From Candidatus Aenigmatarchaeota archaeon (lineage in GTDB: Archaea > Aenigmatarchaeota > Aenigmatarchaeia > GW2011-AR5 > JACRAC01): a stretch of 33,842 nucleotides of DNA. Each line of letters starts with the position of its first letter. Positions within the stretch are counted from its first letter, which is position 1. The notes beneath the pieces were generated by a model that saw only the letters and a program-made list of their open reading frames with translations, searched no databases and was not told the DNA's origin. Positions 10,204 through 17,767 of the stretch are shown here, in pieces. The stretch covers positions 1 through 33,842 of the forward strand of contig JACRAC010000002.1 of the NCBI GenBank assembly GCA_016213555.1, given 5' to 3'. The position numbers and the translations under genes were made by a program.

Positions 10204-10284
10204 CTTTCTTTAAATGTTTTCTAAGATGATGTTTAGAAATAGCTCTAAGAGTAATGCTGGGGTAGCCAAGTGGTTACGGCGCTA

Positions 10285-10313
10285 ATTCGTAAACTATATT
10301 TTACGAAGCGTGT
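10285..10313 (+). other. Noncanonical tRNA-Ser intron (position 29/30)
   Basis: 29 nt. The pre-tRNA can form a clean bulge-helix-bulge: GCGC (10279-10282) pairs with GCGT (10308-10311), flanked by three-base bulges TAA (10283-10285) and GTG (10312-10314); cutting after the second base of each gives exactly the needed exons. An eight-pair inner hairpin (TTCGTAAA with TTTACGAA) fills the intron. Confidence 0.85.
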
Positions 10314-10321
10314 GCCTGCTA

Positions 10322-10355
10322 ATAACATTTGCTTTAAAAAAGCAAACTAGCTGTA
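10322..10355 (+). other. Canonical tRNA-Ser intron (position 37/38)
   Basis: 34 nt after anticodon base 37. The four-base helix CTGC/GCTG has one T-T mismatch, with bulges TA|A on both sides. A seven-pair inner hairpin (TTTGCTT with AAGCAAA) follows. The boundary is ambiguous by one A because A repeats at both junctions. Confidence 0.75.
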
Positions 10356-10409
10356 AGCTAGTTTCCGAAAGGATGCGTGGGTTCGAATCCCACCTCCAGC
10401 GCTTACCCA

Positions 10410-13720: not shown

Positions 13721-13810
13721 GGGCCGGTGGTCTAGCGGTTATCTTTAAAGAGCGTAAATGACGCCGCCCTTACAAGGCGGATATCGCAGGTTCGATTCCT
13801 GCTCGGCCCA
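13721..13810 (+). tRNA. tRNA-Val(TAC) with a D-loop insertion
   Basis: GGGCCGG pairs with TCGGCCC, the discriminator is A (13810), the anticodon stem is CCGCC/GGCGG around CTTACAA with anticodon TAC at 13771-13773, and the T arm is GCAGG/CCTGC. The D stem is GTC/GAC. Without the 17 nt at 13742-13758 the D loop reads like ordinary archaeal tRNA-Val; mature length is 73. CCA is not encoded. A TATA-like GATTTAAAC lies about 35 bases upstream. Confidence 0.92.
13742..13758 (+). other. Probable D-loop intron of tRNA-Val, 17 nt
   Basis: The insertion starts TCTTTAAAGAG. It can form GCG/CGT plus a CTT/GAG mini-hairpin around the junction, a relaxed bulge-helix-bulge. Boundaries are uncertain by two bases because of repeated A and T. 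The stop codon of the antisense endonuclease ORF (13745-13747) lies inside it. Confidence 0.6.
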
Positions 13811-14333
13811 CTTTAAAAATTTTTTATTATGTTTAGAATTATTCGGGGTTACTAGTTTCCACCATCTAATTACGTTTTTACTACCCATGCTATAAATCCT
13901 GTATCTTTTATATATTTTTTTAGTTCTTTTGTCAAAACTTTCATGTTTGAAAATACTATGTTTAAATTCTAAATTTTTTAAAATTTGTGAGATATCTTTT
14001 TTTAGATTGTTACTATTTGTTACTATCTCAATAATTGGATATTTTTTATCTCTTAATCTAAAACAACCGTCAGAATCTATTATACCCCTTAAAAAAGCTA
14101 TTTGAAATTGTTTGCTTGAAAGTATCCATTTAGGTATTCTTATGTTATTTTTTGGAGATTCTTGTACATTCAAAATATCTCTGAAGAAATGAAAAACAGC
14201 TTTTGATCTCAGTCTTATTCTTATACCATTCTTATTTTTTAAGTAATCTAATTTAATGTTATTAAAATTGAACAAATTCTGCTTTCTTTTTATTAGTATA
14301 GACTCAAAATATTCTATATCATCTATCTCTTGC
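13745..14333 (-). pseudogene. LAGLIDADG homing endonuclease, C-terminal piece
   Basis: An open minus-strand frame whose first endonuclease-like residues begin at the inversion breakpoint (QEIDDIEYFESILIKRKQN), then IRIRLRSKAVFHFFRDIL, the LAGLIDADG helix IAFLRGIIDSDGCFRL, and a C-terminal domain ending KHNKKFLKWAEQ. The last 19 residues are read antisense through tRNA-Val and stop in its 17-nt insertion. The missing first third lies on the plus strand at 14613-14803. A TTG at 14275 could restart a shorter protein, but without the first LAGLIDADG helix it should not cut DNA. See the inversion entry. Confidence 0.75.
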
Positions 14334-14471
14334 TGGAAAAAGTGTCTCCACAGTAGCTTTCATTGCCTCATTCCAAAATAAACCAACTACAAACACCATA
14401 GAAGTAACAATAGCTGCAAGAAACATCATCTTAAAATCTTGTTTTTCAGCAGATTCTTGAACAGAAGCCAT
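14319..14471 (-). pseudogene. DUF5654-like membrane protein, N-terminal piece
   Basis: ATG at 14471 encodes 50 residues: a polar start, then FLAAIVTSMVFVVGLFWNEA, matching the first span and WNEA motif of DUF5654 proteins, then MKATVETLFP. After the breakpoint the frame adds only ARDR and stops at TGA. The second half of the family (a second membrane span) is found in the other orientation at 14804-15025. Together they make a normal protein of about 120 residues. Confidence 0.72.
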
Positions 14472-14803
14472 AATAACCTAATAATTATTTAGTTTTTAGA
14501 AGTTAAAAAAGATAACTAGCGTGGAAATTTTAACATATATTCTCTGAAATATATTTTTGTGTTTTTGAGCTCTAGGCAAAGTTTGTATATATTCTACAAT
14601 CTTTAGTTACATATGAATCTGGATCTTTCAAATGTTGAATTTAGCAAGAATGATTTAAGACGTAGAATAAGAATTCCTGAAATTTTGTCAGAAGAACTAG
14701 CAGAAGATGTAGGGTTTCATATAGGAGATGGATATATGAGATCCAGAAAGAATAAAAACGATAATGAGATTAAATACGATTTTGATTATGCTGGTAGTAA
14801 TCT
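14334..14803. other. 470-bp inverted segment that splits two genes
   Basis: Turning this segment around restores two genes in frame at once: the endonuclease (minus strand: N-terminal piece, then C-terminal piece, joining ...AGSNL to QEIDDIEYF) and the DUF5654-like gene (plus strand: ...TVETLFP joining SLGVKFATAM). The breakpoints are 14333/14334 and 14803/14804, give or take two bases. Only a GCT microhomology is shared at the ends; there are no long inverted repeats. Confidence 0.8.
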
Positions 14804-14816
14804 AGCCTTGGTGTGA
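14613..14816 (+). pseudogene. LAGLIDADG homing endonuclease, N-terminal piece
   Basis: ATG at 14613 encodes 67 residues. SEELAEDVGFHIGDGYMRS is the first LAGLIDADG helix, and YDFDYAGSNL is the strand that follows in archaeal endonucleases of this group. The frame then reads ALV and stops in DUF5654-like sequence. A TATA-like GTATATATT near 14584-14592 lies 20-30 bases upstream. It is the beginning of the gene whose rest is at 13745-14333 on the other strand. Confidence 0.75.
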
Positions 14817-15025
14817 AATTTGCGACTGCTATGATTGTGACAGTGATAGTAGCATTTGCAATTTTCATATTATACAGATCTATAACTTTGGCTCAACGAG
14901 CTCAGAAAGGAGTTGTAAATCAGATGTCAAGACTAAAGATAGAACTAGATAAACAAAGAAAAGAAGCAGAAAGAAGACAGAAATTATTGGAAAAGGCTCT
15001 CGCAAAAGCCACTAAAAATCTATAG
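14804..15025 (+). pseudogene. DUF5654-like membrane protein, C-terminal piece
   Basis: The frame SLGVKFATAMIVTVIV continues into AFAIFILYRS (the second membrane span) and a charged coiled-coil tail (residues LDKQRKEAERRQKLLEKALA). It could restart at GTG 14813. It lacks the first span and WNEA motif, which lie at 14319-14471 in reverse orientation. The long tail is not usual for DUF5654 and may be special to this gene. Confidence 0.7.
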
Positions 15026-16620: not shown

Positions 16621-17682
16621 TCAACACCTATAACAATAACATGTATCTGCACCATCTACTGTACTATGATGTTCTAATCTAAATCCCCATGTTGTTATTT
16701 CATATGATGTATTAGATTTAATTGCTTCATCAGATTTGACAAAACTTTTATTTTCTAAATGTCTTTCTTTACACATAGATTCACAAATTGTTTCTAATTC
16801 ACATTTAGACCTAGATAATCCCTTAGACTCACACCAATCAGTAACCTCACTCTCATAAATATATGGATCATAATAAGTATAGTATTCCTTAACCATATCG
16901 TCATAACAGTTTAATGAGTATAGATTATATCCATCAGATGTAGATTCTTTTTTAGTTGTTAGTGTATCCCCAGAAGGAGCAAAAGGTTCTTTCTTTATTA
17001 GAATTGGTTTTTCTTGTATTTCAGGAAATATAATTGGTTTGAATGTTATATTAATGTAGTTTGGAGAGGATTTATTATAATTATACACCAAGGCAATTCT
17101 CAATACTAATTTATTTGAATCGCTACATCTTATCTTCATGTCAGATGTATAGCTTGTGCCACCGCCTGTAAAAGTAACTGTCCTTCCTGAAGGTATATCT
17201 TTATCAGCATAATCTCTAAGTAAATAATCTGGATTTAATGTACAGTTTCCAAATGAGTAATGTAACCCAGACATACAATAACTACAACTTCCATAAGACC
17301 CTCCTATATAGTAAAGTGTAGAATTTCTTTCATTAGTTATATAAAATTCAAAATAACTTGTTTTCCATCCTTTCCATGGGTTATCTTTATCAATAAGAGA
17401 AAAGCTATTCTGTACTAATGTAACATTTAATCCATCTTGTAAAATAGACTGAGAATATATGGTAAGATCATTATTAGCTGCTTGTTCTGTTAAAGAATCT
17501 GATTTTTGTCCAGTTTCTATATTAGATTTCTCTACTTTATTTGTTTCAGAAGAAACAGATGTATCTTTTGTTTTGGTATCAATATTCGAAGTGTTCTTTT
17601 CATTCTGCCCTATACATCCACTAACAACTACTACTGTAGCTAAAAGAATAATTATTGAAATACTTTTCCACTTTCCATACAT
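16621..17682 (-). CDS. Secreted lipoprotein, cysteine-rich
   Basis: 353 residues. A basic start, a hydrophobic stretch and the lipobox VVSGC (Cys23) mark a lipoprotein signal, followed by a Thr/Ser/Lys-rich linker. Residues about 75-210 look like a beta-sandwich of DUF4352-type lipoproteins (LTIYSQSILQDGLNVTLVQ; SYFEFYITNERNSTLYY). The C-terminal third has about ten cysteines (for example CELETICESMC and the end TCYCYRC), suggesting disulfides. The ATG lies one base after the tRNA-Glu discriminator, so no independent ribosome-binding site exists. The function is unknown. Confidence 0.65.
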   Translation of the reverse strand: MYGKWKSISIIILLATVVVVSGCIGQNEKNTSNIDTKTKDTSVSSETNKVEKSNIETGQKSDSLTEQAANNDLTIYSQSILQDGLNVTLVQNSFSLIDKDNPWKGWKTSYFEFYITNERNSTLYYIGGSYGSCSYCMSGLHYSFGNCTLNPDYLLRDYADKDIPSGRTVTFTGGGTSYTSDMKIRCSDSNKLVLRIALVYNYNKSSPNYINITFKPIIFPEIQEKPILIKKEPFAPSGDTLTTKKESTSDGYNLYSLNCYDDMVKEYYTYYDPYIYESEVTDWCESKGLSRSKCELETICESMCKERHLENKSFVKSDEAIKSNTSYEITTWGFRLEHHSTVDGADTCYCYRC

Positions 17683-17693
17683 ATGCTCTGTGC
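17682..17693 (+). repeat. tRNA-Glu 3'-end copy of the 12-bp direct repeat
   Basis: TATGCTCTGTGC here is the end of tRNA-Glu and the start of the lipoprotein gene. It is identical to 15056-15067. It would be the tRNA-side attachment site if the island integrated here. Confidence 0.4.
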
Positions 17694-17718
17694 GGGATTT
17701 GAACCCACGTCACAGCCT

Positions 17719-17767
17719 ATCTTTATATCACTGCCATTCAAATGAATGACTCTAACCTTTCGGTATT
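17719..17767 (-). other. Canonical tRNA-Glu intron (position 37/38)
   Basis: 49 nt. CTTT of the anticodon loop (17773-17770) pairs perfectly with AAAG in the intron (17724-17721), with three-base bulges CG|A and AT|A at the junctions: a textbook bulge-helix-bulge. A CATTCA/TGAATG hairpin lies inside. Confidence 0.88.

What the first reader, a model, noticed from the sequence alone, without database searches (positions are those of the whole stretch)
14319..15025. One 470-bp inversion reciprocally splits a homing endonuclease and a DUF5654-like gene
The endonuclease start is on the plus strand (14613-14803) and its rest on the minus strand (14333 to 13745); the DUF5654-like start is on the minus strand (14471 to about 14334) and its rest on the plus strand (14804-15025). 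Re-inverting 14334-14803 rebuilds both in frame at the same breakpoints. Only a GCT microhomology is shared. It may be a recent inversion, a reversible switch, or a chimeric contig.
Basis: seen in the sequence. Interest (0 to 1): 0.8.

Follow-up and report, generated by a model that had tools for sequence, protein, structure and literature searches.

The report
Small inversion breaks two archaeal genes
In a genome of an uncultured archaeon, a flipped stretch of about 479 bases cuts through two neighbouring genes, one of them a selfish DNA-cutting gene parked against a transfer-RNA gene. The flip itself is ordinary, but the cutting gene belongs to a family that repeatedly settles on the ends of tRNA genes.

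Summary
The contig carries a balanced inversion that splits a divergent pair, a LAGLIDADG homing endonuclease (HEN) gene and a DUF5654 gene. Relatives encode both proteins uninterrupted. They move the left breakpoint 9 bp: the segment is 14325-14803 (479 bp, not 470), with 3 bp of microhomology (TAG/CTA, not GCT). Rebuilt this way, both proteins align with relatives with no gap at the junction, and the DUF5654 score rises from 33 to 42 bits. There is no inverted repeat and no recombinase noticed nearby, so a switch is very unlikely. A recent one-off inversion is the best reading; an amplification chimera cannot be excluded without reads.

The context is more interesting. The HEN sits antisense between tRNA-Val(UAC) and DUF5654, and its stop codon lies inside a 17-nt insertion in the tRNA's D-loop. 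A relative has intronless tRNA-Val directly before DUF5654: an empty site. The three closest HENs (43-49% identical, in genomes labelled as three different archaeal groups) also lie antisense against tRNA-Val(UAC), each carrying an intron or the same kind of D-loop insertion. Across the family, HEN 3' ends overlap or abut tRNA genes far above chance. I infer a free-standing, tRNA-targeting homing endonuclease, later broken by the inversion.

The parts
13721..13811 (+). tRNA-Val(UAC) gene with a D-loop insertion (ARAGORN calls it tRNA-Leu(gag) because of the insertion)
   Evidence: Acceptor, anticodon (CUUACAA) and T arms intact by sequence and fold. ARAGORN; Rfam tRNA match to its 3' part, 28.5 bits, just below cut-off. 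No uninterrupted copy at 2 mismatches or fewer in the own genome.
13742..13758 (+). 17-nt insertion in the D-loop of tRNA-Val (placement ambiguous by 1-2 nt); holds the HEN stop codon (13745-13747, minus strand)
   Evidence: Comparison with intronless tRNA-Val of G008 and with L079, which has a 28-nt insertion at the same site. The only hit among 156 genomes of the phylum to the strict inserted pattern.
13745..14325 (-). 3' part of the LAGLIDADG endonuclease (second motif FLRGIIDSDG), cut off from its start
14323..14326 (.). left inversion junction (CTA microhomology)
14325..14471 (-). 5' part of DUF5654, with GCAAGAGAT (residues ARD) restored to it; its frame now runs on to a stop at 14319
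   Evidence: Pfam DUF5654 28.0 bits for the fragment; nearly all relatives spanning the join have the extra residues
14325..14803 (.). inverted segment, 479 bp
   Evidence: Breakpoint scan
14472..14612 (.). intergenic region between the two gene starts, inverted as a whole
14549..14591 (+). promoter-like block (GTTTTTGAGCTC..TAGGCAAAGT..TATATA) upstream of the HEN start, shared with other free-standing endonuclease-like genes of this genome
14613..14803 (+). 5' part of the LAGLIDADG endonuclease (first motif GFHIGDGYM); its frame now runs on to a stop at 14816
14802..14805 (.). right inversion junction (TAG microhomology)
14803..15025 (+). 3' part of DUF5654 (second membrane segment and charged tail)

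Best explanation
Ancestrally the locus read tRNA-Val(UAC)(+) - HEN(-) - DUF5654(+). The HEN was a free-standing LAGLIDADG homing endonuclease that had settled against the 3' end of tRNA-Val. A single balanced inversion of 479 bp, joined at 3 bp of inverted identity (TAG/CTA), then exchanged the 5' ends of HEN and DUF5654 and disabled both. It is recent and one-off, not a switch. Shown: the inverted arrangement in the contig, the intact genes in relatives, the empty site, and the tRNA overlap. Inferred: that it happened in cells, that the HEN cut tRNA-Val, and that the D-loop insertion protects the tRNA gene from it.
For: Rebuilt HEN aligns end to end with a 49%-identical relative (G004, L029/L078) and with L079 and L080. 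Rebuilt DUF5654 matches relatives with no gap once the breakpoint is moved 9 bp, and its Pfam score rises from 33.1 to 42.4 bits. G008 has intronless tRNA-Val, then about 70 bp, then DUF5654 on the same strand, without a HEN: an independent witness of the ancestral orientation. The exchange is balanced to the base, with no detectable loss. None of the four fragments has a premature stop or frameshift, although 5.4% of possible substitutions in them would make a stop; that suggests an age below roughly 2-5% neutral divergence (my estimate). Ku is absent from the genome, which fits a microhomology join, and 3 bp or more of identity is found in 7.6% of random breakpoint pairs here.
Against: No reads and no second genome of the species were available, so the other orientation was not looked for. 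Position along the breakpoint diagonal is fixed only to a few bp by protein scores (720.0 against 717 for neighbours). The inversion step itself rests on this one contig.
Confidence: 0.8

Rival explanations
1. The inversion is a laboratory or assembly chimera (whole-genome amplification or library artefact); both genes are intact in the organism.
For: Single draft genome of 62 contigs, 87% complete. Amplification by MDA mostly makes inverted joins, usually primed on 2-21 nt of identity (PMC1855051).
Against: MDA chimeras are single inverted joins with an intervening deletion (PMC1855051); here two joins reciprocate each other without detectable loss. An assembler cannot join k-mers across 3 bp, so reads with both joins must have existed (inference).
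Confidence: 0.15
2. A reversible promoter or gene switch: both orientations coexist and are exchanged by a recombinase.
For: The segment holds both gene starts and the intergenic region, as phase-variable segments do.
Against: No inverted repeat at the junctions beyond 3 bp. No recombinase noticed in the ORFs around the segment (not tested by profile). One orientation breaks both genes rather than switching them.
Confidence: 0.02
3. The four ORFs are separate functional genes and the match is coincidence or an old, fixed rearrangement.
For: All four frames are open.
Against: Each fragment lacks half of a known family; relatives carry contiguous genes; the HEN fragments separate the two LAGLIDADG motifs.
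Confidence: 0.02

Closest known systems
Single-chain LAGLIDADG homing endonucleases (I-DmoI, PI-PfuI, PI-SceI; Pfam LAGLIDADG_3)
   Same: Both motifs with their acidic residues in the rebuilt protein (G-D-G and D-S-D-G). Profile matches intein endonucleases (7qsu E=2.8e-15, 1dq3 E=9.9e-8) and I-DmoI (E=1.1e-5).
   Different: Not inside an intron or intein: free-standing, its 3' end overlapping a tRNA gene on the other strand. Here split by the inversion.
Free-standing phage homing endonucleases, intronless and collaborative homing (T4 seg genes, mobE; reviewed in PMC2988022)
   Same: The endonuclease gene lies beside a conserved gene, and a nearby intron could be carried along by co-conversion.
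   Different: LAGLIDADG rather than GIY-YIG or HNH; archaeal; the neighbour is a tRNA gene. Cleavage and homing are not shown.
Insertion at tRNA-Thr in Caldiarchaeum subterraneum (PMC3293823)
   Same: An archaeal mobile ORF (813 bp, predicted DNA-binding or recombination) inserted at a tRNA gene together with an intron in its D-arm region (24/25).
   Different: That element carries a repeated 545-bp region and was read as a plasmid-type transposable element; no LAGLIDADG assignment is given. I did not compare the proteins.
Archaeal group I and BHB introns with LAGLIDADG genes in rRNA (PMC6125680)
   Same: Same nuclease class in the same archaeal groups.
   Different: There the nuclease gene is inside the intron and all 39 reported group I introns are in rRNA; here it is outside and next to a tRNA.

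Membership tests
LAGLIDADG homing endonuclease | Two LAGLIDADG motifs with catalytic acidic residues in one chain | tested here: met
   GFHIGDGYM (D39) and FLRGIIDSDG (D147) in invariant columns of the alignment; Pfam LAGLIDADG_3 44.6 bits against cut-off 22.5. Rebuilt protein only; split in the contig.
LAGLIDADG homing endonuclease | Site-specific DNA cleavage leading to homing | not testable with these tools
   Needs purified protein and target DNA.
DUF5654 | Match to the Pfam DUF5654 profile above cut-off over most of its length | tested here: met
   Rebuilt protein 42.4 bits, cut-off 23.8, profile 4-68 of 71.
Phase-variable invertible segment | Inverted repeats at both ends recognised by a recombinase | tested here: not met
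   Only 3 bp of inverted identity; no inverted repeat pair at the junctions.
Phase-variable invertible segment | Both orientations in the population | not testable with these tools
   No reads held.
MDA chimera | Inverted join with intervening deletion | tested here: not met
   Two reciprocal joins, balanced; definition from PMC1855051.
Free-standing (intronless or collaborative) homing element | Nuclease gene next to its target gene; empty site in relatives | tested here: met
   HEN against tRNA-Val in window, L029/L078, L079 and L080; empty site in G008. That tRNA-Val is the cut target is inferred.
Free-standing (intronless or collaborative) homing element | Target site interrupted in carriers of the nuclease | tested here: inconclusive
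   4 of 4 tRNA-Val genes next to this subfamily carry an intron or D-loop insertion, but in the wider family some adjacent tRNAs are intronless (about 71-75 nt), and tRNA-Val introns also occur without a HEN (L014).
BHB tRNA intron (for the D-loop insertion) | Bulge-helix-bulge at the exon-intron borders | tested here: inconclusive
   No clear BHB motif in the fold of either inserted tRNA.

The most novel reading that the evidence does not exclude
A large family of free-standing LAGLIDADG endonucleases in DPANN and other archaea targets tRNA genes from outside. It settles with its 3' end on the tRNA and carries tRNA introns and D-loop insertions along by co-conversion (collaborative homing). 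It would be a driver of tRNA intron spread in these archaea, with insertions at two tRNA-Val sites serving as alternative protections of one target.
Probability: 0.4. Interest if true: 0.7.

Novelty: new variant of a known kind. Interest (0 to 1): 0.42.

Why it matters
The inversion is an unusually clear case of a selfish nuclease gene being switched off in one step together with its neighbour. The larger point is its setting. If free-standing endonucleases of this family do home into tRNA genes and bring introns with them, that gives a testable cause for the many tRNA introns of these archaea. The prediction is concrete: purified nuclease should cut the uninterrupted tRNA-Val gene and spare the interrupted ones.

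Tried and rejected
GCT microhomology: rejected. End joining by Ku: no Ku in the genome. DUF5654 loci as a control for tRNA proximity: unsuitable, since DUF5654 is itself often next to tRNA genes in relatives. Viral origin of the HEN: only weak relatives (23-29% identity over most of the length) in viral contigs.

Full report
WHAT WAS CHECKED. Inverting 14334-14803 in silico gives two open frames of 259 and 119 residues. They match LAGLIDADG_3 (E=1.5e-11) and DUF5654 (E=5.7e-8) in Pfam. The window is contig C10 of an 879-kb, 62-contig, 87% complete genome. Its nearest relative with a similar endonuclease, G004, is in the same order.

BREAKPOINTS. Giving GCAAGAGAT (ARD) to DUF5654 removes both gaps. 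The rebuilt proteins are then 256 and 122 residues, and the DUF5654 score rises from 33.1 to 42.4 bits. The four tied solutions reflect a shared TAG (CTA inverted) at the two sites; 3 bp or more of identity occurs in 7.6% of random pairs here.

INDEPENDENT WITNESS. In G008 (L020) an uninterrupted, intronless tRNA-Val(UAC) lies about 70 bp upstream of DUF5654 on the same strand, without a HEN. This fixes the ancestral orientation of DUF5654 and shows the site before the HEN arrived. In G004 (L029), L079 and L080 the HEN is contiguous.

HOW THE INVERSION AROSE. The exchange is reciprocal and balanced, with 3 bp of identity and no inverted repeat. The genome has no recognisable Ku. A microhomology join of two breaks is the simplest cause (inference). 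All four fragments remain free of premature stops and frameshifts although 5.4% of substitutions in them would create a stop, so the event is young, below about 2-5% neutral divergence by my estimate. MDA chimeras are inverted joins with a deletion (PMC1855051), unlike this balanced pair, but only reads can settle it. With 3 bp of inverted identity, and with both genes broken in the present orientation, a switch is very unlikely.

THE ENDONUCLEASE AND ITS SITE. The rebuilt HEN has both LAGLIDADG motifs and resembles archaeal intein endonucleases and I-DmoI by profile. Its 3' end runs antisense through most of tRNA-Val(UAC), and its stop codon lies in a 17-nt insertion in the D-loop. The three closest relatives lie in genomes labelled Aenigmatarchaeota, Woesearchaeota and Nanohaloarchaea (49, 45 and 43% identical). 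All three are also antisense at the 3' end of tRNA-Val(UAC). All four tRNA genes are interrupted: a 37/38 intron in two (64 nt in G004), a D-loop insertion at the same site in the other two (17 nt in the window, 28 nt in L079). The inserted D-loop pattern was found in 1 of 156 genomes of the phylum, the window's own, and in L079's genome. No uninterrupted copy was found in the window's genome at up to 2 mismatches. The two insertion sites are about 17 nt apart, within one typical LAGLIDADG recognition length (established knowledge), so both could protect one target. That is inference.

THE FAMILY. Counting Rfam tRNA matches at or above cut-off, the HEN stop lies in or beyond a tRNA gene in 13 of 40 relatives from related genomes. 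In 40 loci from GTDB species, 24 have a tRNA overlapping or within 110 nt of the HEN stop, 10 of them overlapping (one of the ten, L079, identified by eye). The sets share a few loci, for example L029 and L078. In a further 19 loci from another phylum, not chosen for this, 5 overlap, 2 lie 2 nt away and 1 lies 107 nt away; by the share of tRNA bases in those loci about 0.4 overlaps are expected. Several others end in peptides typical of tRNA antisense or sense reading without a detected tRNA. Adjacent tRNAs are often, not always, interrupted, so a strict need for an intron is not supported.

LITERATURE. Closest precedents are intronless and collaborative homing in phages (PMC2988022) and the tRNA-Thr insertion of Caldiarchaeum (PMC3293823). 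In the open library searched I found no description of tRNA-adjacent free-standing LAGLIDADG genes in archaea; subscription papers are not covered.

VERDICT. The inversion is real in the contig, probably real in the organism, ordinary in kind and without sign of function. The tRNA-seated endonuclease family is the part worth following.

Noticed in passing
window 13742-13758; L079 3702-3806 (minus): tRNA-Val(UAC) genes with an insertion at the same D-loop site (17 and 28 nt) in two different archaeal lineages, both next to a related HEN; no clear bulge-helix-bulge motif.
   Followed up: partly
window 14549-14591; L002 (C11), L003 (C3), L004 (C14): A promoter-like block (GTTTTTGAGCTCTCTAGGCAAAGTGGTATATA) is shared upstream of the window HEN and ORFs on C3 and C14; CTCTAGGCAAAGT occurs only at these three places in the genome, and a partial form precedes the C11 HEN. 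The C14 ORF is LAGLIDADG_3; the C3 ORF has no Pfam match.
   Followed up: partly
L003 29-1479; L004 1579-3010: The C3 ORF ends beside the 3' end of ribosomal protein S11, and the C14 endonuclease overlaps the 3' end of a TGS-domain gene: nuclease-like genes against ends of conserved genes other than tRNA.
   Followed up: no
L002 776-1623 (G000 C11): A second HEN in the same genome ends in ASVAQLVER, running in the sense direction into the 5' end of an interrupted tRNA gene.
   Followed up: yes
window 10256-10401: Another tRNA gene with a long insertion (146 nt, Rfam 39.2 bits).
   Followed up: no
window 17691-17721 (minus): tRNA T-arm-like stretch (weak tmRNA model match), possibly a tRNA with insertions; the ORF 17459-17749 reads through it.
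   Followed up: no
L020 1360-1767; L014, L015, L016, L021, L023: DUF5654 is often flanked by tRNA genes (Val, Glu) in related genomes.
   Followed up: partly
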